Notes under the pieces: generated by a model
Database searches by the model: none
The model's input: only the letters and a program-made list of their open reading frames with translations
What the model was told of the DNA's origin: nothing
Position numbers and translations under genes: made by a program
In this document: positions 5,373 to 19,481 of the stretch, one piece after another
Position numbering within the stretch: position 1 is the first letter of the stretch
How the letters are laid out: every line of letters starts with the position of its first letter
From: Pararhodobacter oceanensis
GTDB taxonomy: Bacteria; Pseudomonadota; Alphaproteobacteria; Rhodobacterales; Rhodobacteraceae
NCBI RefSeq assembly: GCF_003076755.1
Contig: NZ_QDKM01000008.1
Location: 1 to 64,000 of the forward strand
Direction: 5' to 3'
DNA: 64,000 nucleotides

Positions 5373-6584
5373 TCAATGCAATTGCAAGGTTTCTGTTGAG
5401 ACAGCCCCGGCGATTCCTGTTGATCCATACAGCCATGCCACTTGGTCATACCATTGTTCGGCGCTGCGAGAAGACATGACTTTGTTGCGCAAGGCCGCAT
5501 GTGCGCCTGCGGGGTGATAAATATGTTCGCCGATGGCGCGCGACTGCAACTGGATGCGCGCCGCCCGCAGCACCCGTAAATCGTTGTAAGCAACCAGCGC
5601 CGCCGCCTTATCCGCCGCCCCGTCAAGGCAATGCGCCAGCGCCACCGCATCCTCCAGCGCCATACAGGCACCCTGCGCGAAATACTGAAGCTGCGGATGC
5701 GCCGCATCACCCAGCAAAGCCACCCGTCCATCCACCCAATCCATCACCGGATCACGGTCGCAAAGCACCCAGAGCTTCCAATCCTGCCCGCGCTCGATGA
5801 TCTGCCGCGCCCTTGGATGCACATGCTCGAACCCCTGCGCGACCTCGGCATGCGAGACCGGCAGTCCGGCCACCGGCGCGGCGGCATCATTGTGATAGGT
5901 CACCACCAGATTGAAACTCTGCCCGCCCGAGAGCGGATAATGGACAATATGGCATTTCGGACCGGCCCAGAGCGTCGCATCATTCCAGCGCAGATCCTCG
6001 GGCATATCCTCACGCGCGATCACGCTGCGATAAGTGGTGTGGCCGGAAACCCGCGGCGCACCGTCGCCAAGCATCTGCGCGCGCACCTTTGACCACAGCC
6101 CGTCCGCACCGATCAACAGGCTGCCCGCCACCCGCTCACCGTCTTGCAGCACCGCCTCGACGCCATTGCCACCCTGCGCATAGCCTGCCACTGCGGCATT
6201 GGTGCGCAGCTCAACCAAAGGATGCGCGATACAGGCCTTCAGAAGCACCCCGTGCAGCTCGCCGCGGTGCACCACCGCATAGGGATTGTTGAACCGCGCG
6301 CGAAAGGCCTCATCCAGCGGGATGCGGGTGACCTCTGCACCCGAGAGCGCATCCATCAGCCGCAGGTTGTCGATATAGACCGCCATCGCCCGCGCCTGAT
6401 CGCCGACGCCCAGATAGTCAAAGGCATGGAAGGCATTCGGGCCCAACTGGATGCCCGCGCCGATCTCGCCAAGCGTTGATGCCTTTTCCAGCACCAGAGA
6501 GGCGATGCCCTTTTGCGCCAACCCGATCGCTGTCGCCAGCCCTCCGATCCCGCCACCGGCAATGACCACGCGGTTTATGCTCAT
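5373..6584 (-). CDS. FAD-dependent hydroxylase, 3-hydroxybenzoate 6-hydroxylase type
   Basis: A 403-residue class A flavoprotein monooxygenase (PHBH fold). Visible motifs are the dinucleotide-binding GGGIGGLATAIGL at residues 10-22, the DG segment LIGADGLWSKVR near 156-167, and the second FAD motif GRVALLGDAAHPQLQYFAQG near 286-305. Family members hydroxylate 3-hydroxybenzoate or salicylate with NAD(P)H and oxygen to gentisate. The three genes upstream encode gentisate breakdown, which makes 3-hydroxybenzoate 6-hydroxylase (NagX/MhbM/XlnD-like) the best call, though salicylate 5-hydroxylation cannot be excluded. It starts 3 bases after the isomerase stop and is the last catabolic gene of the operon. 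Confidence 0.88.
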   Translation of the reverse strand: MSINRVVIAGGGIGGLATAIGLAQKGIASLVLEKASTLGEIGAGIQLGPNAFHAFDYLGVGDQARAMAVYIDNLRLMDALSGAEVTRIPLDEAFRARFNNPYAVVHRGELHGVLLKACIAHPLVELRTNAAVAGYAQGGNGVEAVLQDGERVAGSLLIGADGLWSKVRAQMLGDGAPRVSGHTTYRSVIAREDMPEDLRWNDATLWAGPKCHIVHYPLSGGQSFNLVVTYHNDAAAPVAGLPVSHAEVAQGFEHVHPRARQIIERGQDWKLWVLCDRDPVMDWVDGRVALLGDAAHPQLQYFAQGACMALEDAVALAHCLDGAADKAAALVAYNDLRVLRAARIQLQSRAIGEHIYHPAGAHAALRNKVMSSRSAEQWYDQVAWLYGSTGIAGAVSTETLQLH

Positions 6585-6587
6585 CCG

Positions 6588-7229
6588 CTATTCCGCATCG
6601 GGTTGCTGGGCGGGATGGGCCTGCGCGAAGGCGGGTAGCGCCTCGCAGGCGGCGACAATGGCGTTGAGCCGCGGCATCGCCGACATATCCACTTTGAAAC
6701 GCTGCGCCGAATAGACCTGCGGCATCAGATAGACCTCGGCCATGCCGGGTGCATCGCCAAAGGCAAAAGCGCTGGCCGGACGGTTGGCCAGAAGCGCTTC
6801 ACAGGCCGCCAATCCATCGCCGATCCAACGTTGGCACCATGCCTCCTTGCCGCTTTGCTCCTGCGCGAATTCGCCGCCAAGATATTGCAACACGCGCAGG
6901 TTTTGCAGCGGGTGGATCTCGCAGGCGATCACCGCGCAAAAGGCCCGCACCGCCGCGCGTTCCATCGGATCGCGGGGGAGCAACGCCGGTTCAGGATGCG
7001 CCTCTTCCAACCACTCAAGGATCGCAGGCGATTGGGTCAGCGCCTGCCCGCCGACCTCAAGTGTCGGCACCAGACCTTGCGGGTTTAATGCGCGGTAAGC
7101 CTCACTGCGTTGCTCGCCGCCACCGCGCACCAGATGGACCGGCACAAACTCATACTCCAGACCCTTGAGGTTAAAGGCAATCCGGCAGCGATAGGACGAA
7201 GACGAGCGGAAATAGCCGTGAAACCGCAT
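6588..7229 (-). CDS. nagL: Maleylpyruvate isomerase, zeta-class GST family
   Basis: A 213-residue glutathione-transferase-fold protein. It should convert maleylpyruvate to fumarylpyruvate using glutathione, the third step of the gentisate route. The N-terminal thioredoxin-like domain carries the zeta-class motif SSSSYRCRI (residues 9-17), where the Ser-Ser-Cys-like region binds glutathione, then NPQGLVPTLEVGG and TQSPAILEWLEE. The helical C-terminal domain has IHPLQNLRVL, typical of maleylacetoacetate/maleylpyruvate isomerases. The related maleylacetoacetate isomerase would be an alternative by sequence alone, but the flanking gentisate dioxygenase and fumarylpyruvate hydrolase decide the assignment. 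It is 2 bases from the hydrolase gene and so co-transcribed. Confidence 0.88.
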   Translation of the reverse strand: MRFHGYFRSSSSYRCRIAFNLKGLEYEFVPVHLVRGGGEQRSEAYRALNPQGLVPTLEVGGQALTQSPAILEWLEEAHPEPALLPRDPMERAAVRAFCAVIACEIHPLQNLRVLQYLGGEFAQEQSGKEAWCQRWIGDGLAACEALLANRPASAFAFGDAPGMAEVYLMPQVYSAQRFKVDMSAMPRLNAIVAACEALPAFAQAHPAQQPDAE

Positions 7230-7231
7230 AT

Positions 7232-7930
7232 TTATTCCGCCTCGCCGATATTCAGCGAGATCGGCGCCAAACCGTCAATCGCACCGGTGATCGCATCACC
7301 GGCCACCACCGCGCCGACCCCTTCGGGCGTGCCGGTCATGATCACATCGCCGGGGCGCAGATGGTAGTATTTCGACAGATCCATCACCACTTCCACGCAA
7401 CCATGGATCATATCCGCCAATGTCGCGTTCTGCTTGGTCTTGCCGTTCACCGCCAGAGTGATCGCCTGCGGACCAACCTCGCCGAAGGTCTCAGCCTTGG
7501 TCAACGGTGCGAAAACCGCCGAACCCTCGACATCCTTGCCAGTATCCCATGGCCGCTGCTTGACCCGCGCCGCCTGCTGCAAATCGCGGCGCGTCATATC
7601 CAAGGCGCAGCCATAAGCATAGATCGCCGCCGCCGCCGCGTCGCGGTCGGCGCGAAACACCTCGCGGCCAATGACCAGCGCCAGTTCCATTTCATAGTGA
7701 AAACTCTCGGTGCCCGGCGGATAGGGCAGAGTGGCCCCCGAGGGCAGCGCATGGGTCGGGGTCTTGGTGAAGTAGAACGGCGCGTCGCGATCCACCTCCA
7801 TCCCCATTTCGATGGCATGGGCGGCATAGTTCCGGCCGACGCAGAAGATGCGCACAACGGGATATTCCGCCGCCTCGCCCTGCACCGGAATGCTGGGGAA
7901 ATCAGGGGTGTCGAACAGGGTTGCGGTCAT
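7232..7930 (-). CDS. nagK: Fumarylpyruvate hydrolase, FAH family
   Basis: A 232-residue fumarylacetoacetate-hydrolase-fold enzyme that would split fumarylpyruvate into fumarate and pyruvate. Family marks are GRNYAAHAIEMG (residues 32-43), the metal-binding acidic pair in FHYEMELALVIG (about 77-88), the Asp in GCALDMTRRDLQ, and the C-terminal IMTGTPEGVGAV. Its ATG overlaps the gentisate dioxygenase stop by 4 bases (ATGA), so translation is coupled. Length fits the short single-domain hydrolases of aromatic catabolism rather than the longer fumarylacetoacetase. Confidence 0.9.
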   Translation of the reverse strand: MTATLFDTPDFPSIPVQGEAAEYPVVRIFCVGRNYAAHAIEMGMEVDRDAPFYFTKTPTHALPSGATLPYPPGTESFHYEMELALVIGREVFRADRDAAAAAIYAYGCALDMTRRDLQQAARVKQRPWDTGKDVEGSAVFAPLTKAETFGEVGPQAITLAVNGKTKQNATLADMIHGCVEVVMDLSKYYHLRPGDVIMTGTPEGVGAVVAGDAITGAIDGLAPISLNIGEAE

Positions 7931-8958
7931 CTTGTGCGTTCCTCGTAGTAACCTAGTTTCATCTGCAGCGGGCGGTCATGCGCGCGCACCAAAAAGCTTT
8001 CGTCATCGGCATGGTGGTCGATCGTCGCGAAGGGCGCAGCGGTAAACGTATCCTTCGGCCCCCATTCAATCACCTTGCCATCAATCGTGCTGCGACCGCG
8101 CCCCTTGATCACGTGGAACGCCGCCGAGCTTGAGCGTTGCGGCGGGCTCTCGCCCTGCCCCGCGGCCAGCATCATCGCGGTAAATCCCATCGTCGGCAAC
8201 ACGTCCTCACCGGTTTCGGGGTTCACGTAATCCACCTCGGCCAGCGCATCGCCGCCGTATTCGGCCAGCGCCCGCAAAGCCGATTCGGTTCGCTGCCAAG
8301 GGAAACGTACCATCGGGTAGCGCCGCGCTTGCTGGCGGCTGCGCGAGGGCACCAGCCCGGCGGATTGATACTCGACCTGCGCCGCATCGGGGCGATTGCG
8401 CGCCGCCTGCAAGGGGCCTTCAATGGCATAAGAGCCCTCAAGATAATAAAACAGCGGCAGGTCCAGCACATCGAGCCAGACCACCGGCGCCTCGCCATCA
8501 TGGCCATGATCATGCCAATCGCCACCGGGAGTCATTACCAGATCTCCCTCTTCCATCGGCAGCTTTTCACCATCGACCACGGTATAGCCGCCCGCGCCCT
8601 CGACCACGATGCGCACCGCTGAAGGTGTATGCTTATGCGCAGGCGCGGTCTCGCCGGGCAGCAGCAGTTGCATCCCCAGATAGAGGCTCGCGGTGGCCTG
8701 CATCGCCCCCGCCCCGCGCCCGGGATCCGAGAGCACCAGCACCCGCCGCTCGGCCTTCTCCACCGGGCTCAACTCACCGGCGCGCAACAACAGCGGCCGC
8801 AGCGCGTCATAGGCCCAATAACCCGGCTGGGTGATCGGCTTCGGCTGCCCATGCGGCAGGACATTGCGCATCATCGGCCAGAGCGGCGCGACACCGGCAG
8901 CGGTCATCGCCTCGCGGTAATCTTGTGGCAGATCCTCCAGCGTTCCCAGTTGCGTCAT
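7927..8958 (-). CDS. nagI: Gentisate 1,2-dioxygenase
   Basis: A 343-residue bicupin Fe(II) enzyme that opens the ring of gentisate to maleylpyruvate with oxygen. The first cupin holds the metal-ligand region HKHTPSAVRIVVEG (about residues 100-113) and the second histidine of GGDWHDHGHDG, followed by WLDVLDLPLFYYLE, a strong family signature. The second, degenerate cupin lies near 260-330 (HVIKGRGRSTIDG). It is the first gene of the minus-strand catabolic operon, with GGGGAGG upstream of the ATG, and faces the divergent MarR gene across 85 bases that hold an operator-like repeat. Confidence 0.93.
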   Translation of the reverse strand: MTQLGTLEDLPQDYREAMTAAGVAPLWPMMRNVLPHGQPKPITQPGYWAYDALRPLLLRAGELSPVEKAERRVLVLSDPGRGAGAMQATASLYLGMQLLLPGETAPAHKHTPSAVRIVVEGAGGYTVVDGEKLPMEEGDLVMTPGGDWHDHGHDGEAPVVWLDVLDLPLFYYLEGSYAIEGPLQAARNRPDAAQVEYQSAGLVPSRSRQQARRYPMVRFPWQRTESALRALAEYGGDALAEVDYVNPETGEDVLPTMGFTAMMLAAGQGESPPQRSSSAAFHVIKGRGRSTIDGKVIEWGPKDTFTAAPFATIDHHADDESFLVRAHDRPLQMKLGYYEERTR

Positions 8959-9043: not shown

Positions 9044-9532
9044 ATGCCCGATAGCGACACCCACAGCCAAACCCAGTTCCACCAGATGCCCGGCTATCTG
9101 ATCCGGCGGCTGAACCAGATTTCCACCTCGATCTTTCAAGACCGGATGGCAGCACTGCAACTGGACCTGACTCCGGTGCAATTCGCCGCACTCTCTGCGC
9201 TGCAGGTCAACCCCGGCATTGATCAGGCAACGCTGGCGGGGTTGATCGCATATGACCGGGTGACCATTGGCGGGGTGATCGACCGGCTCAGCACCAAGGG
9301 GCTGGTGGCGCGCAGCATCAACGCTCGCGACAGGCGCGCGCGGCAAGTCTCGCTGACGCCCGAGGGCAATGCGCTGCTGCATCGCATCACGCCCGAGGTT
9401 GCGGCGCTGCAACCTTCGATCCTCGACGGGCTCACCGAGGCCGAGCGCGCGCTTTTCATCGCGCTGGCACAAAAGGCCGCCGCCGCCAGCAACGACCGCA
9501 GCCGCGCACCGCTGCGTCCGCGCAAACCCTGA
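9044..9532 (+). CDS. MarR-family regulator of the gentisate locus
   Basis: A 162-residue winged-helix regulator. The HTH lies at about residues 58-80 (IDQATLAGLIAYDRVTIGGVIDRL) and the wing is SINARDRRARQVSLTPEG (DxRxR motif, typical of MarR proteins). Relatives sense phenolic or aromatic acids and release DNA upon binding. It is divergent from the gentisate operon with an inverted repeat between, so local control of that operon is the simplest reading. The C-terminus has an extra Ala- and Arg-rich tail (KAAAASNDRSRAPLRPRK). There is no ribosome site before the ATG (see promoter entry). Confidence 0.92.
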   Translation: MPDSDTHSQTQFHQMPGYLIRRLNQISTSIFQDRMAALQLDLTPVQFAALSALQVNPGIDQATLAGLIAYDRVTIGGVIDRLSTKGLVARSINARDRRARQVSLTPEGNALLHRITPEVAALQPSILDGLTEAERALFIALAQKAAAASNDRSRAPLRPRKP

Positions 9533-9578: not shown

Positions 9579-9584
9579 TTGACA
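9579..9584 (+). promoter_or_regulatory. Candidate -35 box of the ABC importer operon
   Basis: A consensus TTGACA lies 81 bases upstream of the binding-protein ATG and 30 bases upstream of the TetR operator. The matching -10 (CACGCT region, 9602-9607) is poor, so the exact promoter is uncertain. Confidence 0.3.
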
Positions 9585-9614
9585 CAGGCAATTTTCGAAG
9601 GCACGCTTCGCATG

Positions 9615-9638
9615 AAACATGACTCAGTGTTCATGTTT
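9615..9638. promoter_or_regulatory. TetR-type operator upstream of the ABC importer operon
   Basis: A perfect inverted repeat AAACATGA-N8-TCATGTTT lies 22 bases upstream of the binding-protein ATG. Its core ATGACTCAGTGTTCAT differs by a single base from the site in front of the tetR gene 8.5 kb away (18162-18177). A shared core plus dyad symmetry makes this a strong candidate binding site for that TetR protein. Confidence 0.72.
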
Positions 9639-9659
9639 GCACGAGCCTGGGAGGACCTC

Positions 9660-10838
9660 ATGAGATTATATCTGACCGCTGCCCTTGCGGCGCTGGCCAC
9701 CGCACCCGCGCTGGCCGACGAAATCCGCATCGCCCATATCTATGACCGCACCGGCGCGCTCGAAGCCTATGCGGCGCAAAGCCAGACCGGCCTGATGATG
9801 GGTCTGGAATATGCCACCGATGGCACGATGGAAATCGATGGAAACCAACTGGTTGTGATCGAAAAGGACAGCCAGTTGCGGCCCGATCTGGGGCGCGCCT
9901 TGCTTGCCGAAGCCTTCGGTGATGACGACGCCGCGATTGCCGTCGGACCGACCAGCTCGGGCGTCGCGCTGGCGATGTTGCCCGTGGCCGAGGAATACGA
10001 GCGTATTCTGCTGGTGGAACCCGCGGTGGCCGATTCGATCACCGGCAGCGGCTGGAACCGCTACATCTTCCGCACTGGCCGCAACTCCAGCCAGGATGCG
10101 ATCTCGAACGCGCTGGCACTGGGTCAAGAGGGCGTCGTGGTTGCCACGCTGGCGCAGGATTATGCCTTTGGCCGTGACGGCATCGCCGCCTTCCGCGAGG
10201 CGCTGGCCGACACGCCCGCGACATTGGTGCACGAAGAATATGTGCCCACCGACACCACCGATTTCACCGCCGCAGCCGAGCGTATCTTTAACGCGCTGCA
10301 AGAGCACGAGGGCGACCGCCGCCTGTTCGTAATCTGGGCCGGTGGTGGCAATCCGATGGGCCGCATTCAGGCAATGGATCCCAGCCGCTACGGCATCCAG
10401 ATGGCCACCGGTGGCAACATCCTGCCCGCGCTGGTCGGCTACCGCGACTACCCCGGCATGGAGGGCGCGACCTATTACTATTATGAGATCCCGCAAAATC
10501 CGGTTAACGACTGGCTGGTTGAGCAGCATATGGAGCGCTTTGGCACCCCGCCCGACTTCTTCACCGCAGGCGGCATGGCGGCTGGTATTGCCGTGGTCGA
10601 AGCCCTGCGCGCCACCGGCGGCTCAACCGACACCGAAGAGCTGATCGCGGCGATGGAAGGCATGCATTTCGAGACCCCGAAGGGCGAGATGTGGTTCCGC
10701 CCCGAGGACCATCAGGCGATGCAGTCGATGTATCACTTCCGCATCCGTGTCGAGGATGACGTCGAATGGGCGATCCCCGACCTTGTGCGCGAGATCACTC
10801 CGGATGAAATGACCATCCCGATCCGCAACAACGGCTGA
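9660..10838 (+). CDS. ABC transporter substrate-binding protein, branched-chain type
   Basis: The periplasmic receptor (type I fold, LivJ/HAAT family) of the importer encoded by the next four genes. The ATG at 9660 follows GGGAGGA, and the signal peptide is about 19 residues, ending TAPALA before DEIRIAH. The 392-residue protein has the family features of an early IAHIYDRTGALEAYA ligand loop, VGPTSSGVALAMLPVA, and a late TAGGMAAGIAVVEAL. The longer open frame from 9369 only reads through the end of marR. The ligand is unknown. Family members take amino acids, aromatic acids, amides or short acids, and the acyl-CoA ligase and hydratases at the other end of the module favour a carboxylic acid. 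Confidence 0.93.
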   Translation: MRLYLTAALAALATAPALADEIRIAHIYDRTGALEAYAAQSQTGLMMGLEYATDGTMEIDGNQLVVIEKDSQLRPDLGRALLAEAFGDDDAAIAVGPTSSGVALAMLPVAEEYERILLVEPAVADSITGSGWNRYIFRTGRNSSQDAISNALALGQEGVVVATLAQDYAFGRDGIAAFREALADTPATLVHEEYVPTDTTDFTAAAERIFNALQEHEGDRRLFVIWAGGGNPMGRIQAMDPSRYGIQMATGGNILPALVGYRDYPGMEGATYYYYEIPQNPVNDWLVEQHMERFGTPPDFFTAGGMAAGIAVVEALRATGGSTDTEELIAAMEGMHFETPKGEMWFRPEDHQAMQSMYHFRIRVEDDVEWAIPDLVREITPDEMTIPIRNNG

Positions 10839-10880
10839 TCCACCCAAGGCAGGGCGCCGGGCCCAACCCGCGCGCCCTGC

Positions 10881-10925
10881 CCCCTCATCTGTCCAAAAAT
10901 ATCCCCGCCGGAGGCTCCCGCCGCG
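10881..10925. repeat. Dispersed intergenic repeat, copy A
   Basis: It contains CTCATCTGTCCAAAAATATC, followed by a GC-rich segment with GGAGGCTCC. The same core recurs at 22433, 35068 and 38672, always outside genes. This copy lies inside the ABC operon, between the binding-protein and first ATPase genes, and may mark a processing or attenuation point. Confidence 0.65.
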
Positions 10926-10973
10926 CTACAACGCGCGACCGGCCCGCCGTTGCGCAAGCCCTCAGGAACCCGC

Positions 10974-11738
10974 ATGTCACAGCCCTCTTTGGTCACCAAG
11001 GATCTGACCATCCGTTTCGGCGGCCATGTCGCGGTCGACCGGGTCAGCTGCGCCTTCCGCCCCGGCGAATTGACCGCCATTGTCGGCCCCAACGGCGCCG
11101 GTAAAACCACCTATTTCAACCTGATCTCGGGCCAGCTCAGCCCCACCGCAGGACGGGTCGAGCTGCTAGGCCAAGATATCACCCGTTTCACCGTCTCGGC
11201 CCGCACCCATGCCGGACTTGGCCGCGCGTTCCAGCTGACCAATCTGTTTCCGCGCCTGACCGTGCTCGAGAACGTGCGGCTGGTGGTGCAGGCCCGCGCA
11301 CGGCGCGGTTTTAACCTGTTTACCATGGCGCAAAGCCACCGCGATCTGACCGAGCAGGCGGCGCAGGTGCTCGAACAGGTGCGGCTGACGCATCTGGCCG
11401 ATCAAACCGTCTCGGCGCTCAGCCACGGCGACCAGCGCAAGCTCGAGGTTGCCGCCCTGATCGCACTGAAACCCAAGGTGTTTATGTTTGACGAACCCAC
11501 CGCCGGCATGTCGGTCGAAGAGGCGCCGGTGATCCTTGATCTGATCGCCGGTATCAAAGCCGATCCCGAAGCCACCGTTCTGCTGGTCGAGCACAAGATG
11601 GATGTGATCCGCTCGCTCGCCGACCGCATTATGGTGCTGCACAACGGCGCTTTGGTGGCCGATGGCGCCCCCGCCGAAGTGATGGCCTCGGATATCGTGC
11701 AAGAGGCCTATCTGGGCAAGGAACTCACTGATGTCTGA
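10974..11738 (+). CDS. Branched-chain-type ABC transporter ATPase (LivG-like)
   Basis: The first of two cytoplasmic ATPases of the importer, 254 residues from the ATG at 10974 (AGGAA 7 bases upstream; an in-frame TTG at 10950 is less likely). The Walker A motif is GPNGAGKTT at about residues 34-42. The LivG-specific insert and the signature-like region LSHGDQRKLEVA precede Walker B VFMFDEPTAG and the switch His in LLVEHKMD. The signature reads LSHGD rather than LSGGQ, which is normal for LivG-type subunits. Its stop overlaps the next start by 8 bases. Confidence 0.93.
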   Translation: MSQPSLVTKDLTIRFGGHVAVDRVSCAFRPGELTAIVGPNGAGKTTYFNLISGQLSPTAGRVELLGQDITRFTVSARTHAGLGRAFQLTNLFPRLTVLENVRLVVQARARRGFNLFTMAQSHRDLTEQAAQVLEQVRLTHLADQTVSALSHGDQRKLEVAALIALKPKVFMFDEPTAGMSVEEAPVILDLIAGIKADPEATVLLVEHKMDVIRSLADRIMVLHNGALVADGAPAEVMASDIVQEAYLGKELTDV

Positions 11739-12453
11739 CCCGATCCTCACGCTCAAGGGCGTCAAAACCGACATCGCGCAATATCACATCCTGCACGGGA
11801 TCGACCTTGAGGTGCCGCGCGGCGGGGTCACCATGCTCTTGGGCCGCAACGGCGCGGGCAAGACCTCGACGATGCGCACGATCATGGGGCTCTGGACCCC
11901 GCGCGCCGGTGAAATTACGCTGGATGGCACGCGGATTGACGGGCTGACCCCCTCGCAGATTGCCCGCAAAGGCATCGGTTTTGTGCCCGAGGATATGGGG
12001 ATTTTCTCGGATCTCACAGTCGAGGAAAACCTGCATCTCGCCGCCCTCGCGGGCCGCCCGTCTCCTGAGCGGATGGATTGGGTGTTCGGCGCGTTTCCGG
12101 CGTTGAAAACCTTTCTGCACAGCACCGCAGGCAATCTTTCGGGCGGGCAGAAACAAATGCTCTCGATCGCCCGCGCCGTGGTCGAAGACCGCGCGCTTTA
12201 TTTGATCGACGAGCCCTCCAAAGGGCTGGCGCCAGCGATTGTCGCCACGCTGGCGCGGGCGCTCAAAGACCTGAAAGCGCGCGGCGCGTCGATCCTGATG
12301 GTCGAGCAGAATTTCTCACTGGCCCGCGCCTTGGGCGACACCGCTGCGGTGATGGATGACGGCAAGATCATCTGGACCGGCACAATGGCCGAATTGTCCT
12401 CGGACGCTGCCTTAATGGAGCGTCTGATGGGTTTGAAAATGGAAACGACATGA
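11731..12453 (+). CDS. Branched-chain-type ABC transporter ATPase (LivF-like)
   Basis: The second ATPase of the importer, 240 residues. Walker A is GRNGAGKTS near residues 37-45, the ABC signature is LSGGQKQMLSIAR, Walker B is LYLIDEPSKG, and the switch region is MVEQNFSLA with Gln before Asn in the LivF manner. It overlaps livG-like by 8 bases and the permease gene by 4 (ATGA), so the operon is translated as a tightly coupled block. Confidence 0.93.
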   Translation: MSDPILTLKGVKTDIAQYHILHGIDLEVPRGGVTMLLGRNGAGKTSTMRTIMGLWTPRAGEITLDGTRIDGLTPSQIARKGIGFVPEDMGIFSDLTVEENLHLAALAGRPSPERMDWVFGAFPALKTFLHSTAGNLSGGQKQMLSIARAVVEDRALYLIDEPSKGLAPAIVATLARALKDLKARGASILMVEQNFSLARALGDTAAVMDDGKIIWTGTMAELSSDAALMERLMGLKMETT

Positions 12454-13508
12454 GCCCCGCACCCCAACAGGCCCCGCAAAACGCGCCCCAACACGCCCCG
12501 ACTATCACCCATTTGCCGCTGTCCGAGCGGCTCAAGCCGTGGCTGCCGGTGCTCTTGGTGCCGGTGCTGATCGTCGCGGGTTATTTCGCGATTCCGCAAA
12601 CCTCGTCATGGCTGACACTGACCGTATCAGGGCTGGCGATGGGGATGATGATTTTCGTCATCGCCTCGGGGATGACCTTGGTTTTCGGGTTGATGGATGT
12701 GATCAACTTCGGCCACGGCGCGTTTATCTCCTTTGGCGCTTTTGTCGGCACCACGGTGCTGTTGATGCTGTCCTCGATGACCGGCGCTCCGTCGTTGTTC
12801 TTGAACCTGCTGGCGATTTCGGCAGCGGTGTTGGCGGCGATGGTGGTGACGGGCGCCATCGGCTGGGGGTTCGAGCGTGCGATTGTGCGACCGGTCTACG
12901 GCTCGCACCTCAAGCAAATACTCGTCACCATGGGCGGACTGATCGTCGCCGAGCAGATGATCTATGTGCTTTGGGGTGGTCAAGAGATCGTCATTCTGCG
13001 CCCTGAAACCCTGAAAGGCGCGATTACTTTCGCCGGTGCCACGCTGGAGAAGTACCGCCTGCTCGCTGTGGCTGTGGGTCTGGTGCTGTTTCTGGCGATG
13101 CGCGCGGTGCTGCGGCGCACCAAACTGGGGCTGATCGTGCGCGCCGGTGTCGACAACCCCGAGATGGTGCAGGCGCTGGGCTATAATATCACCCGCGTGT
13201 TTGTCGGTGTGTTCATCGCCGGTTCCGCGCTGGCGGGGCTCGGCGGGGTGATGTGGGCGCTCTACCAAGAGGTGATCACCGCGCATATGGGCAACGAGAT
13301 CATGATCCTTGTCTTCGTGGTGGTGATCATCGGCGGACTGGGCAGCGTCGAAGGCTGTTTCATCGGCGCGCTGACCGTTGGATTGATGCAGAACTACATC
13401 GCCTTTCTGGAGCCGAAACTGGCGCTGGTGTCGAATATCGCGCTGATGGTGGCGATCCTGATGTGGCGGCCGATGGGTATGGTGCCCGTCGTCAAGGCCA
13501 AAGGGTGA
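12450..13508 (+). CDS. Branched-chain-type ABC transporter permease (LivH-like)
   Basis: An inner-membrane permease of 352 residues. A polar, Gln/Pro/Ala-rich N-terminal leader of about 25 residues (with repeated AP and QQ/QN) precedes the first helix, longer than usual for LivH. The family core starts near 55 with SGLAMGMMIFVIASGMTLVFG and includes MDVINFGHGAFISFGAF and, late, ALAGLGGVMWALYQEV and IIGGLGSVEGCFIGAL. The ATG overlaps the ATPase stop (ATGA). Confidence 0.92.
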   Translation: MSPAPQQAPQNAPQHAPTITHLPLSERLKPWLPVLLVPVLIVAGYFAIPQTSSWLTLTVSGLAMGMMIFVIASGMTLVFGLMDVINFGHGAFISFGAFVGTTVLLMLSSMTGAPSLFLNLLAISAAVLAAMVVTGAIGWGFERAIVRPVYGSHLKQILVTMGGLIVAEQMIYVLWGGQEIVILRPETLKGAITFAGATLEKYRLLAVAVGLVLFLAMRAVLRRTKLGLIVRAGVDNPEMVQALGYNITRVFVGVFIAGSALAGLGGVMWALYQEVITAHMGNEIMILVFVVVIIGGLGSVEGCFIGALTVGLMQNYIAFLEPKLALVSNIALMVAILMWRPMGMVPVVKAKG

Positions 13509-13518
13509 GGGCAGGACA

Positions 13519-14577
13519 ATGATGAACCGTATCCTGTCGGGCGACGGCCCCAAAAGCTGGATCCTCGCCGTGGTCTTGCTGATTATCCTGATTTCGCTGG
13601 CCTTCGCGCCCTTCCTCTTCCCCGGTTCGCGGTCCTTGGAGACCGCCGCGCGGATCTGCGTGTTTATCGTGCTGGTCGCCAGTTATGACCTGTTGCTCGG
13701 CTATGGCGGCATCGTCAGCTTTGCACATACGATGTTCTTTGGCATGGGCGCTTACGGCGTGGCGATTGCCATGGACCGGATGGGCACCAGCTACAGCGCG
13801 CTGGCGCTCGGCATCCTCGCCGGAGCCGTGGCGGCGGGCCTGTTGGCGCTGCTGACCGCGCTACTGTCGCTTAGGGTGCGGGCGATCTTCTTTGCGATGA
13901 TCACGCTGGCGGTGGCCTCGGCCTTTGCAGTGCTGGTCAGCCAGCTTTCGGGCTTCACCGGCGGCGAGGACGGGATGAATATCCGCATCCCGCGCGAGCT
14001 GACCCCCGCCTTCCGCCCGCTTGACGAGCGTGTCTTGGGGCAGCGGATTTCCGGCAAGCTGATCAACTACTATGTGGTTTTCTTCGGCTGTCTGATCTTG
14101 TTCCTGCTGATGCTCAGGATCGTGAATTCGCCCTTCGGCCGCGTCTTGCTGGCGATCCGCGAGAACGCCTTTCGCGCCGAGGCCATCGGTTACCGCGTGG
14201 TCTATTACCGCGCCATGGCAACCTGCCTCTCGGCGGTGATCGCGGCGCTGGCGGGGTCGATCTTTGCGATCTGGCTGCGCTATGTCGGCCCCTCCACGAC
14301 GCTGGGCATGGAGATCATGCTGGATATCCTGTTGATCGTGGTCATTGGCGGCATGGGAACGATGTATGGCGCGGTGGTCGGCACGGCGATCTTTGTGCTG
14401 GCGCAGAACTACCTGAAATCGCTGATGGGCGGCATGTCCGAGGCGACCTCGGCGCTGCCCCTGGTCCCTGATCTCCTGAGCCCCGACCGCTGGCTGCTGT
14501 GGCTCGGTGTGCTGTTCATCCTGTCGGTGTATTTCTTCCCCACCGGCATTGTCGGACGCCTGCGGGGCACGCGTTAA
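13519..14577 (+). CDS. Branched-chain-type ABC transporter permease (LivM-like)
   Basis: The second permease of the importer, 352 residues with about ten hydrophobic helices. It contains ASYDLLLGYGGIVSFAH, the LivM equivalent of the LivH NFGHG loop, RAIFFAMITLAVASA, GRVLLAIRENAFRAEAIGY (the cytoplasmic coupling loop that meets the ATPase) and VIGGMGTMYGAVVG. GGGCAGGAC precedes the ATG, with a second in-frame ATG 3 bases later. The following hydrolase gene starts 2 bases after the stop. Confidence 0.92.
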   Translation: MMNRILSGDGPKSWILAVVLLIILISLAFAPFLFPGSRSLETAARICVFIVLVASYDLLLGYGGIVSFAHTMFFGMGAYGVAIAMDRMGTSYSALALGILAGAVAAGLLALLTALLSLRVRAIFFAMITLAVASAFAVLVSQLSGFTGGEDGMNIRIPRELTPAFRPLDERVLGQRISGKLINYYVVFFGCLILFLLMLRIVNSPFGRVLLAIRENAFRAEAIGYRVVYYRAMATCLSAVIAALAGSIFAIWLRYVGPSTTLGMEIMLDILLIVVIGGMGTMYGAVVGTAIFVLAQNYLKSLMGGMSEATSALPLVPDLLSPDRWLLWLGVLFILSVYFFPTGIVGRLRGTR

Positions 14578-14579
14578 CT

Positions 14580-15341
14580 ATGCCGGTTTTCCTGCATCGC
14601 TGGGGCGATGGTCCGCCGGTGATCCTGTTGCACGGCTGGACGATGAGCGGCGATATCTGGCAGCCGGTGGCGGCGCGGCTGGAGGCCTGCAGCCTCGCGC
14701 CCGACCTGCCCGCGCATGGGCAAACCAGTGGCTATGCGCCTAGCGTGGCGGGCGGGGTGCAGATGCTCGGCGATCTGATCCGCGACGAAGGGCTGCGGGA
14801 TGCCACGCTGGTCGGCTGGTCCTTGGGCGCGCTGATCGGCTGGCGCTATCTGGCGACGGGCGGCGCGGGCGTGGCGCGGATGGTATCGGTTGATATGTCG
14901 CCCTGCCCGCTGCCGCAGCCGGATTGGCCCTATGCGATGCTGGGGCAAGACAGCGACCGCCCCGCGCTGGCCGCCGAGCGGTTCAAGCACCATTGGCCCG
15001 CCGCCTCACAGGCCATCGCGCAGGGGATGTTTGCCGCCCCAGATCCGGCATTAAGGCCCGAGATCGAGGCCCGTATTCGCGACAATGACGCCGAGGCGAT
15101 GGCCTGTTTCTGGCATGATCTGACCCAAGCCGACCTGCGCGCCGATATCGCCCGTCTCCCGGTGCCCTTGCTGGCGCTGCACGGCGCCAAAAGCCGAGTG
15201 TATCCCCCCGAGACCGGCGCTTGGCTGGCGCAGACCGCGCCTCAGGGGCAAAGCCGGATTATCGCAGGAACGGGCCATTCGCCGATCTTGGAGGCGCCCG
15301 ACGCAGTCGCCGCGGCAATCACCGCGTTTATGCGGGGCTAG
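14580..15341 (+). CDS. Alpha/beta-fold hydrolase
   Basis: A 253-residue cytoplasmic hydrolase. The oxyanion motif is LLHGWTMSG near residues 17-25. The nucleophile elbow GWSLG (about 79-83) carries the catalytic Ser, and GTGHSPILEAP near the end supplies the His. The acid residue is probably the Asp/Glu before LLALHGAKSRVYPPE. The fold resembles BioH-type carboxylesterases and ring-fission hydrolases, so an ester or thioester of the imported substrate is a reasonable guess. The start at 14580 is 2 bases past the permease stop. An upstream extension to 14499 lies in the permease gene. It ends overlapping the convergent MaoC gene by 14 bases. Confidence 0.85.
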   Translation: MPVFLHRWGDGPPVILLHGWTMSGDIWQPVAARLEACSLAPDLPAHGQTSGYAPSVAGGVQMLGDLIRDEGLRDATLVGWSLGALIGWRYLATGGAGVARMVSVDMSPCPLPQPDWPYAMLGQDSDRPALAAERFKHHWPAASQAIAQGMFAAPDPALRPEIEARIRDNDAEAMACFWHDLTQADLRADIARLPVPLLALHGAKSRVYPPETGAWLAQTAPQGQSRIIAGTGHSPILEAPDAVAAAITAFMRG

Positions 15342-15690
15342 AGACGTCCAGCACCCGCACCAAAGCGCGCCCCTCGCAGATCAGCGTGCCATCGGGTAGG
15401 CGGCACGTGGTGGCTAGATCGGCCAGATGTTTCTCAGGCCGCAAGCGGGTGATCTCGACCCGCGCGGTCAGCGGCGTATCCAAGGGCGCGGGATGATGGA
15501 AATTCAGACTTTGCTTGAGGTAATTGGTCCCATATCCGGGTAGTTCCACGCCCAAAAGATAGGAAAACAGCGCCCCGATCAGCGGCTCGGGCACCTGTTC
15601 CAGCCGCCCGCCCGACGCCAAAGCAGCAAAACTTGCGATATCGGCAGCGGAGTAGATCCGCGTGCAACTGGCGAAATCTCCGATCTTCAT
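15328..15690 (-). CDS. MaoC/hot-dog-fold protein lacking the catalytic motif
   Basis: A 120-residue single hot-dog domain. The second half, YLKQSLNFHHPAPLDTPLTARVEI, matches MaoC/FAS-type dehydratases. The first half, where the hydratase-2 motif GDxNPxH should lie, reads ALASGGRLEQVPEPLIG, without the Asp and His. The gene directly upstream encodes an intact MaoC partner and overlaps it by 4 bases. In known heteromeric MaoC hydratases (for example mycobacterial ChsH1/ChsH2) one subunit carries the active site and the other shapes the substrate pocket. I infer the same here. It could alternatively be a thioesterase-like domain. Confidence 0.75.
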   Translation of the reverse strand: MKIGDFASCTRIYSAADIASFAALASGGRLEQVPEPLIGALFSYLLGVELPGYGTNYLKQSLNFHHPAPLDTPLTARVEITRLRPEKHLADLATTCRLPDGTLICEGRALVRVLDVSSPA

Positions 15691-16043
15691 GCCGCATCCT
15701 CCGCCAAGACCGCGCGACCGGTGAAACAGACCGCGCCATCACTGCGGCGGGCGGCGGTCATAGTGATGCCGCTATCCTCCTCGGCCAGCGTCAGGATCAG
15801 CGGCTCACCGGCAAAGGCGGGGTTGGGAAACATCATCTCCTGACCAGTATGCGCGCGCGCGGGATAGGCCTCGCACAGCATCGCCCAGAGTTTGGCGTAG
15901 ATCAGCATGCCGTGGCTGACCGTGCGCCCGAAAGCCGAGGTTGCGCTGAAGGCGGGGTCGACATGGATCGGATTGTCATCGCCCGAAATCCGCGCGAAAG
16001 CGTCGAACTCCGCCTGTGTCGGGCACCACTCGCGCTGCGTCAT
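15687..16043 (-). CDS. MaoC-type enoyl-CoA hydratase
   Basis: A 118-residue hot-dog-fold hydratase, which adds water to an enoyl-CoA to give an (R)-3-hydroxyacyl-CoA. The full hydratase-2 motif is present near residues 18-40: FARISGDDNPIHVDPAF with catalytic Asp and His, then RTVSHGML. Length equals single-domain PhaJ-like enzymes. It overlaps both neighbours by 4 bases (acyl-CoA ligase upstream, degenerate MaoC downstream), so the three proteins should be made in step, and a hetero-oligomer with the degenerate copy is plausible. Confidence 0.88.
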   Translation of the reverse strand: MTQREWCPTQAEFDAFARISGDDNPIHVDPAFSATSAFGRTVSHGMLIYAKLWAMLCEAYPARAHTGQEMMFPNPAFAGEPLILTLAEEDSGITMTAARRSDGAVCFTGRAVLAEDAA

Positions 16044-17503
16044 GGCACGAGCTTGCGCAGTTCGGGCTTGCGCACCTTGCCAGCCGGGGTGCGCGGGAAG
16101 GCCTCGACAATGCGAAACTCGCGCGGGATTTTATAGGCGGCGATCCGGGCGCGCAGCCAGTCGCAAAGCGCGGCTTGGTCCAGCGCCTCACCGCTTTTCG
16201 GGACCAAGAACCCGATGCCGGATTCGCCCCATTTCGCGTCAGGCACGCCGATCACGGCGGCCTCGGCGATCTGCGGATGGGTGATCAACACGCGCTCGAC
16301 CTCGGCGGGAAACACATTCTCGCCGCCCGAAATATACATATCCTTGATCCGGTCGACGATGCGGTAATATCCATCCTCATCGCGCGTCGCGACATCGCCC
16401 GAGCGCAGCCATCCGTCCTCGGTAAAGGCCGCCTCAGTCGCCAGCGGGTTGTCCAGATAGCCGGGCGTGACCGTCGGCCCGCGCAGCAGTAATTCGCCGG
16501 TGCCGGACATGCCATCCTCTACGCCTTGCAGGCGCGCTTCGGTCATCATCTGCGGCTTGCCGACCGAGCCGATCCTGGTCAGCGCCGCGGCCGCGTCGAT
16601 CAGGAAACCAGTGGGGCCGGTCTCGGTCATCCCGAAGCCGTTGCAGATCACCGCGCCCTTGGCAGCAAAATGCGCGATCAGCGCCTCGGGCAGCGCCGCG
16701 CCCCCGCAGGCCCAGCCGCGCAACTCATCCAGATGCGCCCCCTCCAGCGGCAATTTCGCCAGTTCCTGATAGATCGCCGGCACGCCGAAAAACTGGGTGA
16801 TCGCACGGTCCTTGATCAGCGCCAGCAGGGTCTCGGCATCAAAACTGCGCAGCACCAGTGACGCGCCGCCCCATAGAAACAGCGGCATGGTGAACAGATT
16901 GATCCCCGCGGTGTGGAACAAGGGCAGGAAATTCACCGTCCGGTCCTGCGCCAGAAGCCCCATGTTTTGCGCGATATTCATCGCATTGGCCGTCACCATC
17001 CGCGCGGTCTGGATCACCGCTTTGGGCGTGCCGGTGGTGCCCGAGGTAAACAGCACATACCAGACCGCCTCGGCGTCAATTGCGCGGATCGGCAGCGGCA
17101 CCGCCGACGCGGCCTGCGCGCTCAGGTCATTGAGGCTAAGACTGGGCAGGCCCAGCGCAGCGGCCTCGGCGCTGAAGCTATCGTCATGCAGAACCAGCGA
17201 ACAATTGATGCTGGCGACCACGGGTTGCAACTCGGCGGCGGGCTGGCGCCAATTCAGCGGTGCAAGGATCAAACCAGCCTTTTGACAGGCGAAAAGAATG
17301 ACGAAGAACTCGGGCCGGTTCTGGCACAGGATCGCCACCCGCGCGCCCGCATCCACATGTTGCAACAGGGTGGCGGCGATCCGGCTGGCCTCGGCGTTGA
17401 CCCGCGCAAAATCCCATGTCTCGCCGCTCTCATAGTCGGTAAAGGCCAGCGCGTCGGGGCTCAGCTGGGCTCGCTGCGCCGCAAGATCGGGAACCAAGCC
17501 CAT
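16040..17503 (-). CDS. Acyl-CoA synthetase (AMP-forming)
   Basis: A 487-residue member of the ANL superfamily that would activate a carboxylic acid with ATP and CoA. Motifs are the P-loop-like FTSGTTGTPKA (about residues 152-162), GMTETGPTG (A5), WLRSGDVATRDEDGYYRIVDRIKD (A7-A8), and the C-terminal catalytic Lys in RTPAGKVRK near 478. It is at the short end for long-chain ligases, nearer to medium-chain or aryl-CoA ligases, but the substrate cannot be read from sequence. It starts 31 bases after the tetR stop in the same operon. Confidence 0.9.
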   Translation of the reverse strand: MGLVPDLAAQRAQLSPDALAFTDYESGETWDFARVNAEASRIAATLLQHVDAGARVAILCQNRPEFFVILFACQKAGLILAPLNWRQPAAELQPVVASINCSLVLHDDSFSAEAAALGLPSLSLNDLSAQAASAVPLPIRAIDAEAVWYVLFTSGTTGTPKAVIQTARMVTANAMNIAQNMGLLAQDRTVNFLPLFHTAGINLFTMPLFLWGGASLVLRSFDAETLLALIKDRAITQFFGVPAIYQELAKLPLEGAHLDELRGWACGGAALPEALIAHFAAKGAVICNGFGMTETGPTGFLIDAAAALTRIGSVGKPQMMTEARLQGVEDGMSGTGELLLRGPTVTPGYLDNPLATEAAFTEDGWLRSGDVATRDEDGYYRIVDRIKDMYISGGENVFPAEVERVLITHPQIAEAAVIGVPDAKWGESGIGFLVPKSGEALDQAALCDWLRARIAAYKIPREFRIVEAFPRTPAGKVRKPELRKLVP

Positions 17504-17534
17504 GGTCAGGCCTCGCAGCCAAGGATCGCGGTGT

Positions 17535-18146
17535 TCATGGTCTCAATCCACGTTCAAGCATATCGAAGACTTCATCGACAACCATATCGAGGTCAATCCC
17601 CGTTTCCCAGATCGCAAAACGCTCGCCCAGCGTGATCGCCATGCCCATCAGCGCCCAGGCCCGCACCTCGGCGCTGCCACTGCGGATTTCGCCTTCTTTG
17701 GCGGCGGCCGAGAGGTTCTGCGCATAGCCCCGCGCGAAGACCGTGTAATAGTCGCGGTAGGCATCGGGGGCGACAAACCGCGCCTCGGTGACGATGTTGT
17801 AAAGCGTCGGGCGCTCGGCCACGAAGGCGAGAAACGCGCGCAAACCGCGCCGCTCGGCGGTCAGACGGTCGGGCGCATCGGCAACGGCTTCGGTCAGGAA
17901 CCCACGGGTCAACCGGCCCATTTCGACGACCAATTCGCGAAACACCTCGTCTTTGCTTTGGAAATAGATATAAAAGGTGCCCTGCGCGATGCCGGCCTTG
18001 CGGGTGATATCGGCGATCGACGAGGCCGCATAGCCGATCTCGCCGATCACCGCTTCGGCGGCGCGCAATAGGCCTGCGCGGGTATCCTTGCCGCGTCGGG
18101 TGCGCGGATGCGGGGGCGAGCGCCGGTTGGGCGGGACGTCGGCCAT
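17535..18146 (-). CDS. TetR-family regulator of the importer/acyl-CoA module
   Basis: A 203-residue regulator. The N-terminal HTH spans about residues 40-62 (SSIADITRKAGIAQGTFYIYF), the classical TetR motif with GTFY. The C-terminal ligand-binding helices are less conserved. It is the first gene of the operon tetR-acyl-CoA ligase-maoC-maoC. The site ATGATTCAGTGTTCAT lies 15 bases upstream of its ATG and overlaps its promoter, so it probably represses itself. The same site guards the convergent ABC operon. The natural inducer may be the acyl-CoA made by the next gene, as in many TetR proteins of fatty and aryl acid catabolism; this is inference. Confidence 0.92.
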   Translation of the reverse strand: MADVPPNRRSPPHPRTRRGKDTRAGLLRAAEAVIGEIGYAASSIADITRKAGIAQGTFYIYFQSKDEVFRELVVEMGRLTRGFLTEAVADAPDRLTAERRGLRAFLAFVAERPTLYNIVTEARFVAPDAYRDYYTVFARGYAQNLSAAAKEGEIRSGSAEVRAWALMGMAITLGERFAIWETGIDLDMVVDEVFDMLERGLRP

Positions 18147-18160
18147 GGGTCTTCCTGACT

Positions 18161-18178
18161 TATGATTCAGTGTTCATA
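18161..18178. promoter_or_regulatory. TetR-type operator upstream of tetR
   Basis: TATGA-N8-TCATA inverted repeat with core ATGATTCAGTGTTCAT, 15/16 identical to the site at 9619-9634. It overlaps the -10 of the tetR promoter on the minus strand, as expected for an autorepressor. Confidence 0.75.
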
Positions 18179-18203
18179 TTGAAGCCTCCTCACCACCTGT
18201 CAA
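18176..18203 (-). promoter_or_regulatory. tetR operon promoter
   Basis: On the minus strand TTGACA (18203-18198) and CAATAT (18181-18176) are spaced by 16 bases. The -10 overlaps the operator, which explains repression. Confidence 0.6.
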
Positions 18204-18311: not shown

Positions 18312-19481
18312 ATGTCAGAGCGGATTTCAGTGCTGATTGGAACCACCAAGGGCGTGTTTATCCTGCGCTCGGACGCGGCGCGGCGCGATTGGGCGCTCAG
18401 CGGTCCGCTTTGTGAGGGCTGGCCCTGCAACCATGTCATCGGCGACCCTGCCACCGGCGATATCTGGGCCGCCGCGGGCGGAGAATGGAACGGCTCGGGG
18501 GTCTGGCGCTCGACCGATGGGGGCGCGACATGGGAGCTGTCGCTGCTGGCCAATGGCGAGATCGACGCATTCCTCGCCCAAGACGCGGAATTCGCCAAGA
18601 TGCTGGGCCATGGGCCATCGCCGGATGCGCCCTATAAGGGGCAGATCACCGGCGTCTGGAGCCTCGGGTTCGAGCATGACACGCTCTATCTCGGCACCAA
18701 ACCGGCGGCGCTACTGGCCAGCACGGATCGCGGCCAGACTTGGGCCAAGGTGCAGGGGCTCAGCGACCATCCTTCGGCGGATGGCTGGCAACCCGGCGGG
18801 GCGGGGCTGGTGCTGCATTCGATTGTCGGCGTGCCCGATGATCCGCAAAAACTCTGGGTCGGGATATCGGCGGCGGGGGTCTTTGCCACCGAGGACGGCG
18901 GCGCCACATGGGACCGCCGCAACCGCCGCTCGAACGCTGCCAGCGCCGCGCAGGCGCAGGACGCCCCGACCCTTGGCGAATGCGGCCATGAAGTCGGCCA
19001 TTGCGTGCATAATATCGTGCGCGCGGATCAGGCGGCGGGCGATCTATTGTATCAGCAGAACCACGAGGGCGTGTTTCGGTCCAAGGATGGCGGGCGCTCT
19101 TGGGATGACATCGCGCAGGGGCTGCCCTCGAAGTTCGGCTTTCCGATTGCCGTGCATCCGCATGATCCGCAGACACTTTGGGTGCTGCCCCTGAACGGGG
19201 ATATGCAGGGCCGCTTTCCCCCCGATGCCAGCGCCGCGGTCTGGCGCTCGCGCGATGGCGGGCAGACATGGCAGGATCTGCGCCAAGGCCTGCCCGGTGA
19301 GAACTGCTTTTTCACCGTCTTGCGGCAGGCGATGGCCACCGATCAGGCGGCGCAGGCGGGGGTGTATTTTGGCACCAACACCGGCTCGCTCTTTGCCTCA
19401 AGGGATGAGGGCGACACATGGACCGAGATCGCCCGCCATCTGCCCACCATTCTGGGCGTCGAGGTCATGCACCAACGATAG
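18312..19481 (+). CDS. BNR/Asp-box beta-propeller protein
   Basis: A 389-residue protein built of sialidase-like repeats. Six Asp-boxes of the form S-x-D-G-G-x-T-W are visible: STDGGATW, STDRGQTW, TEDGGATW, SKDGGRSW, SRDGGQTW and SRDEGDTW. They fit a six- or seven-bladed propeller. There is no signal peptide, so it is cytoplasmic, and the sialidase catalytic residues (Arg triad, RIP motif) are not seen, so the usual database name exo-alpha-sialidase is probably misleading. AGAGGG precedes the ATG. It is divergent from tetR, with the tetR operator 134 bases away, so co-regulation is possible but unproven. Function unknown. Confidence 0.8.
   Translation: MSERISVLIGTTKGVFILRSDAARRDWALSGPLCEGWPCNHVIGDPATGDIWAAAGGEWNGSGVWRSTDGGATWELSLLANGEIDAFLAQDAEFAKMLGHGPSPDAPYKGQITGVWSLGFEHDTLYLGTKPAALLASTDRGQTWAKVQGLSDHPSADGWQPGGAGLVLHSIVGVPDDPQKLWVGISAAGVFATEDGGATWDRRNRRSNAASAAQAQDAPTLGECGHEVGHCVHNIVRADQAAGDLLYQQNHEGVFRSKDGGRSWDDIAQGLPSKFGFPIAVHPHDPQTLWVLPLNGDMQGRFPPDASAAVWRSRDGGQTWQDLRQGLPGENCFFTVLRQAMATDQAAQAGVYFGTNTGSLFASRDEGDTWTEIARHLPTILGVEVMHQR

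What the first reader, a model, noticed from the sequence alone, without database searches (positions are those of the whole stretch)
9615..18178. Matching TetR operators bracket two convergent operons
The sequence ATGAnTCAGTGTTCAT occurs with dyad symmetry at 9619-9634 (before the ABC importer operon) and at 18162-18177 (overlapping the tetR promoter), 15 of 16 bases identical. The two operons converge at 15341/15328, so everything between the sites - importer, alpha/beta hydrolase, two MaoC proteins, acyl-CoA ligase and tetR - would form one regulatory cassette. The operator sequence is not one I recognise from described TetR members.
Basis: partly seen in the sequence, partly recalled or inferred. 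Interest (0 to 1): 0.7.

Follow-up and report, generated by a model that had tools for sequence, protein, structure and literature searches.

The report
TetR operator shared by two operons
Two matching DNA sites flanking a set of uptake and coenzyme-A activation genes are very probably the binding sites of the repressor encoded there, because the same kind of site recurs in related bacteria that keep this repressor, even where the genes have been rearranged, and was not found beside the importer in the relatives examined that lack it.

Summary
ATGAnTCAGTGTTCAT lies at 9619-9634 and 18162-18177 and, with up to 2 mismatches, nowhere else in the 4.08 Mb genome. It is the core of a longer palindrome, about TGAAACATGAATCAnnATTCATGTTTCA. 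Comparison ties it to this TetR. Among 295 family genomes a site profile hits 18 of 18 with the TetR and 0 of 277 without at E<=0.01 (only 2 of the 18 were held out of the profile). Twenty of 32 TetR-less genomes that keep the importer were examined; 0 of 20 have the site before it. Sites follow promoters through rearrangement: both promoters in 16 of 17 convergent loci and 5 of 5 with a distant importer, only the importer's in 5 of 5 collinear ones. The convergent bracket is one layout, not the principle. The TetR's nearest solved relative is the acyl-CoA-responsive SaFadR by sequence and fold; two of its CoA-contact arginines are kept in 29 of 29. Best reading: a repressor of uptake and CoA activation of an organic, probably aromatic, acid, released by the CoA thioester. 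A weaker third site precedes a TRAP transporter elsewhere. No binding was tested.

The parts
9613..9638 (+). Operator 1, palindrome TGAAACATGACTCAGTGTTCATGTTT, 21 bases before the importer SBP start codon
   Evidence: equivalent site before SBP in 17 of 17 convergent loci
9579..9584 (+). TTGACA, possible -35 of the importer promoter; no convincing -10 seen
   Evidence: sequence; the promoter scan did not report it
18157..18181 (+). Operator 2, degenerate palindrome around ATGATTCAGTGTTCAT, before tetR
18198..18203 (-). TTGACA, possible -35 of tetR; with a 17-nt spacer the -10 AATATG (18175-18180) lies inside operator 2
   Evidence: same TTGACA-17-AATATG in 5 of 27 tetR promoters examined (W, L023, L024, L025, L027); not reported
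17535..18146 (-). tetR: TetR-family repressor nearest to SaFadR
16040..17503 (-). acyl-CoA ligase (AMP-binding); best solved relative a feruloyl-CoA synthetase
15687..16043 (-). MaoC-like hydratase 1
   Evidence: PF01575
15328..15690 (-). MaoC-like hydratase 2 (inferred; no Pfam hit)
   Evidence: part of PRK08190, below its cut-off; none
9660..10838 (+). importer substrate-binding protein (Peripla_BP_6)
10974..11738 (+). importer ATPase 1
11731..12453 (+). importer ATPase 2
12450..13508 (+). importer permease 1 (BPD_transp_2)
13519..14577 (+). importer permease 2 (BPD_transp_2)
14580..15341 (+). alpha/beta hydrolase, last gene of the importer operon

Best explanation
The two sites are operators of the TetR encoded at 17535-18146. 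The TetR dimer (or a pair of dimers) binds the palindrome at both promoters and blocks RNA polymerase: in the window's tetR promoter the site covers the likely -10, and in 11 of 27 importer promoters examined its left arm overlaps a TTGACA -35. This represses an ABC importer operon with a hydrolase, and the operon of its own gene with an acyl-CoA ligase and two MaoC-like proteins. When the substrate enters and the ligase converts it to its CoA thioester, the thioester (inferred from the SaFadR relationship) binds the TetR, which lets go and induces uptake, activation and its own synthesis. Shown by sequence comparison: the operator, its link to this TetR, its position at tetR, its conservation. 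Inferred: binding, repression, the ligand. The substrate is most likely an organic acid with an aromatic ring.
For: Only 2 sites in the genome at up to 2 mismatches. Out-of-genus profile and matrix rank the two sites first and second in the window. Presence/absence: 18 of 18 TetR+ against 0 of 277 TetR- family genomes at E<=0.01 (profile sites come from 16 of the 18). Twenty of 32 TetR-less genomes with the importer were examined: 0 of 20 have a site of 15 or more within 300 bp before SBP, best 6.1. Sites track promoters over layouts: convergent 17 loci, SBP site 17 of 17, tetR site 16 of 17; importer distant or on another contig 5 of 5 both; collinear 5 loci, SBP site 5 of 5, tetR site 0 of 5; divergent 8 of 8 at least one site in the shared gap. 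Conserved in 12 of 13 loci of other families that gave no site to the matrix (relatives of a few are in it). Sequence (107 bits against 39 for the next) and fold (ranks 1-7 of 923 matches) point to SaFadR; its Gly48, Tyr51, Tyr53, Arg73, Arg86 are kept in 29 of 29 orthologues, both Arg in 1 of 10 other TetR-like ORFs. SaFadR is released from DNA by acyl-CoA, and Arg73 and Arg86 matter for that (PMC6449355: passages; section 8).
Against: No binding, expression or ligand data. The tetR-side operator is weak in this genome and is not in the genome-wide profile list. One convergent locus (L055) lacks the tetR site; L131, the least similar homologue, has none. Three TetR- genomes have profile hits between E 0.01 and 0.1, and one TetR-less importer stretch has a 17.9 site far from the importer. 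SaFadR Met101, Lys77 and Arg132 are not kept, and the hydrophobic pocket residues only partly. The window lacks the enoyl-CoA hydratase gene found after tetR in 27 of 42 loci. No sigma-70-like promoter was reported at either site by the consensus scan.
Confidence: 0.88

Rival explanations
1. The sites are bound by another regulator, for example the MarR protein at 9044-9532 or a global regulator, and the TetR next door is coincidental.
For: A MarR gene lies just upstream of operator 1.
Against: Sites go with the TetR across 295 genomes. Homologues of this MarR were seen only in W, L023 and L044, while the sites are far more widely kept. TetR-less importers often carry a different upstream element.
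Confidence: 0.05
2. The TetR does bind, but the ligand is the free acid or an unrelated small molecule, not a CoA thioester.
For: Several SaFadR pocket residues differ; no ligand is known.
Against: Two CoA-contact arginines are kept in 29 of 29, tetR is followed by a CoA ligase gene in the same direction in most loci, and the nearest solved relative is an acyl-CoA sensor.
Confidence: 0.25
3. The likeness of the two sites is chance or a remnant of a recent duplication without function.
For: Short motif; a loose pattern search (3 mismatches) finds two or more in 15 of 100 shuffles.
Against: Both hits are exact; conservation across families and layouts; the out-of-genus profile finds both.
Confidence: 0.01

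Closest known systems
SaFadR (FadRSa) of Sulfolobus acidocaldarius, PDB 6EL2/6EN8, PMC6449355
   Same: TetR fold, nearest by sequence and by predicted fold; recognition-helix Gly and Tyr and two CoA-contact Arg kept; dyad operator, few genomic sites, controls acyl-CoA metabolism genes including its own
   Different: about 31% identity; bacterial; controls an importer plus ligase rather than a 23-gene lipase and beta-oxidation cluster; Met101, Lys77, Arg132 not kept. The letters of the SaFadR operator were not found in the main text, so operators were not compared.
Bacterial TetR-type FadR (Bacillus, Thermus)
   Same: TetR fold, acyl-CoA-responsive repressors of fatty-acid degradation (recalled and from passages of PMC6449355)
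   Different: weaker sequence and fold match; the SaFadR paper reports a different ligand entry in them
CouR-type control of hydroxycinnamate uptake and CoA activation (recalled, no call)
   Same: ligand is the CoA thioester made by the regulated ligase
   Different: CouR is a MarR protein

Membership tests
TetR family | N-terminal TetR_N helix-turn-helix domain | tested here: met
   PF00440, 53.9 bits against cut-off 24
TetR family | all-helical two-domain fold | tested here: met
   model with nine helices, mean pLDDT 77.8; top PDB matches are TetRs
TetR family | dyad-symmetric operator near its own gene | tested here: met
   by sequence only: operator 2 and its equivalents
SaFadR-like acyl-CoA-responsive TetR | nearest solved relative by sequence and fold | tested here: met
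SaFadR-like acyl-CoA-responsive TetR | DNA-contact Gly48, Tyr51, Tyr53 | tested here: met
   29 of 29
SaFadR-like acyl-CoA-responsive TetR | CoA-contact and allosteric residues Arg73, Lys77, Arg86, Met101, Arg132 | tested here: inconclusive
   Arg73 and Arg86 in 29 of 29; Lys77, Met101, Arg132 not kept
SaFadR-like acyl-CoA-responsive TetR | release from DNA by acyl-CoA | not testable with these tools
   needs a gel shift
QacR-type pair of dimers on one operator | two dimers on overlapping inverted repeats | not testable with these tools
   the long, about 28 bp palindrome leaves it open
HAAT/Liv-type ABC importer | periplasmic binding protein plus two ATPases and two permeases | tested here: met

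The most novel reading that the evidence does not exclude
A bacterial clade of the archaeal-type FadR has been turned into an aryl-CoA sensor that couples uptake (ABC importer, and in some species a TRAP transporter in trans) with CoA activation of an aryl side-chain acid, which is shortened to 3-hydroxybenzoate and burnt through the gentisate genes next door.
Probability: 0.25. Interest if true: 0.6.

Novelty: new member of a known kind. Interest (0 to 1): 0.45.

Why it matters
It gives a ready regulator-operator pair, with 51 aligned natural sites, for a gene cluster of unknown substrate found in several families of Alphaproteobacteria, and a set of natural rearrangements in which the sites follow the promoters. 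A TetR that senses a CoA thioester of an imported acid would also be a usable biosensor, and the clade gives bacterial relatives of an archaeal regulator whose paper stresses how unlike the known bacterial FadRs it is.

Tried and rejected
Rejected: that the bracket itself matters (collinear, divergent and distant loci). Rejected: the 16-mer as the full site. Left open: the third site in the own genome (12.1 bits, E 1.06). It lies before a TRAP operon (DctQ, DctM) whose relative in G234 has a strong site, but only 2 of 4 TetR+ genomes with that DctQ reach 15 (G288 14.7, G208 6.8), against 0 of 13 TetR- genomes (highest 14.1).

Led nowhere: text searches for the operator letters (70 papers hold a term; in the 20 listed the four long terms do not occur and no title concerns a TetR operator; 50 were not seen); searches for the regulator or pathway; PDB codes of the importer's relative. 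ORF picking by length in GC-rich loci gave mostly antisense frames and was replaced by a codon-position filter. One search translated the wrong frame and was not used. One search stopped on an error and was repeated. The threshold of 15 was chosen after seeing the scores.

Twelve of the 32 TetR-less genomes with SBP were not fetched.
Full report
Observation. With up to 2 mismatches they are the only two in the 4.08 Mb genome; the reversed control gives none. The genes are as described: an ABC importer with an alpha/beta hydrolase on the + strand (9660-15341), and tetR, an acyl-CoA ligase and two MaoC-like proteins on the - strand (15328-18146), the reading frames overlapping by 14 bases. The second MaoC-like protein (15328-15690) has no Pfam match and is named from a partial NCBIfam match below its cut-off.

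The true operator. TetR orthologues were found in 18 of 295 genomes of the family at E<=1e-25, in 16 of 385 of the class at E<=1e-30 (own genome included), and in named genomes (23 loci, of which L021-L033 were used here). The nearest named relatives are Pararhodobacter. Aligning 51 sites gives TGAAACATGAATCA, a variable middle, then TTCATGT; seven positions are invariant in all 51 and the arms are well kept. The sites were picked by likeness to a consensus and by place, so this alignment describes the motif and is not itself a test. The window's importer site is a good example; its tetR site is degenerate outside the core.

Out-of-sample test. A profile of 34 sites without any Pararhodobacter-type site puts 9613-9638 and 18157-18181 first and second in the window. 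The matching weight matrix gives 37.1 and 20.9 against a mean background maximum of 11.3 (sd 3.0) per 64 kb; 1 background hit of 20 or more was seen in 6.4 Mb and 11 of 15 or more. The weight of the tetR site therefore comes from its place and conservation, not its score alone.

Presence and absence. In the same 295 genomes the profile has a hit at E<=0.01 in 18 of 18 TetR+ and 0 of 277 TetR- genomes; at E<=0.1 three TetR- genomes appear (this search used stricter filters that lose some weak matches). The profile was built with sites from 16 of those 18, so only G000 and G222 are independent on the positive side; the negative side is independent. The importer's binding protein occurs in 49 of 295: 17 TetR+ and 32 TetR-. 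Of the 32, 20 were fetched. All 20 keep the five importer genes, none shows tetR, ligase, MaoC or hydrolase homologues in the stretch at tblastn E<=1e-6, and none has a site of 15 or more within 300 bp before SBP (best 6.1); one has a 17.9 site more than 8 kb away.

Layout test (leave-one-locus-out matrix, threshold 15 set after seeing the scores). Of 42 loci: convergent 17, SBP site 17 of 17 and tetR site 16 of 17 (L055 has none). Importer not adjacent 5, both sites 5 of 5: on the same contig in three (about 132, 34 and 34 kb apart by the profile hits) and on another contig in two, one of them a 690-contig assembly. Collinear importer-then-tetR 5, SBP site 5 of 5, tetR site 0 of 5. Divergent 8, at least one site in the gap in 8 of 8, two sites of 15 or more in 2 and a weaker second one (12.7-13.6) in 4. 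One locus (L125) with tetR first and the importer downstream, a site at tetR only. Four with tetR but no importer in the stretch, one site each. L048, where a transposase-like gene stands where most of the cassette would be, two sites, one without an importer behind it. L131, none. Sites lie where a promoter is expected; the bracket is one of several layouts.

Mechanism. In 11 of 27 importer promoters examined TTGACA overlaps the left arm of the operator; in the window's tetR promoter TTGACA at 18198-18203 and a 17-nt spacer put the -10 inside the operator. In the window's importer promoter TTGACA lies 37 bases before the 22-mer and no good -10 is seen; the consensus scan reports no promoter at either place. 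Steric repression and autoregulation follow by inference. The TetR is nearest to SaFadR by sequence (107 bits, next 39) and by fold of a model with mean pLDDT 77.8 (ranks 1-7 of 923). Of the residues named in the SaFadR paper (passages and section 8 read), Gly48, Tyr51, Tyr53, Arg73 and Arg86 are kept in 29 of 29 orthologues; Lys77, Met101 and Arg132 are not. Among 10 other TetR-like ORFs in hand 1, the weakest match, has both arginines. A CoA thioester as inducer is thus likely, not shown.

Substrate. The ligase's best solved relative is a feruloyl-CoA synthetase. The importer's TetR-less relative in L165, the one such locus annotated by family search, sits in a homoprotocatechuate cluster (HpaR, HpaE and HpaD above the NCBIfam cut-offs); the window's cassette adjoins a 3-hydroxybenzoate 6-monooxygenase and a maleylacetoacetate-type isomerase (both above cut-off), and a hydrolase and a gentisate-dioxygenase-like protein (both below). 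This points to an aromatic acid. Against it: beside the tetR cassette the dioxygenase homologue was seen only in the window and in L044 (a TetR-less importer, L163, also has one), and no operator was found before these genes.

Regulon. A third candidate lies at C1:262670-262690 of the own genome, centred 145 bp before a TRAP transporter gene (DctQ, followed by DctM). Alone it is at chance level (E 1.06), but the related operon in G234 (78% DNA identity; DctQ, DctM, DctP) has a strong site in the same role (31.6). Of 17 genomes with this DctQ, sites of 15 or more occur in 2 of 4 TetR+ and 0 of 13 TetR-.

Novelty. In the searches made (listings, and of one paper passages and one section) I found no description of this regulator or operator. 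The kind is known: a TetR repressor of acyl-CoA metabolism. New are the member, its operator and the comparative support.

Noticed in passing
L162-L181, upstream of SBP: TetR-less orthologous importers share another element, about TnCGTATTTnCnCnnAATTGACC: 15 or more of 18 letters in 13 of 20 loci, 12 of them just before SBP, against 0 of 27 TetR+ loci. Possibly an HpaR site; a swap of regulator.
   Followed up: partly
own genome C1:262670-262690 (L161 about 3167) and G234 C19 (L160 3830): Candidate operator before a TRAP transporter operon, far from the cassette.
   Followed up: partly
window 5373-8958: Gentisate-type gene set (3-hydroxybenzoate 6-monooxygenase, isomerase, hydrolase, gentisate-dioxygenase-like) with a divergent MarR gene at 9044-9532 beside the cassette.
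   Followed up: partly
L048 3523-5400: A transposase-like gene (named by eye) stands where most of the cassette would be; both operators remain, one with no importer gene behind it.
   Followed up: partly
27 of 42 loci, after tetR: An enoyl-CoA hydratase gene, before the ligase where the ligase is in the stretch, missing in the window.
   Followed up: partly
L129, L130: More distant TetR homologues (44% and 42%) without the cassette in the stretch still have a site centred 81 and 62 bp before tetR; their targets are unknown.
   Followed up: no
window 18312-19481: BNR/sortilin-like repeat protein divergent from tetR; homologues were seen beside tetR only in L021-L025, L027 and L044.
   Followed up: no
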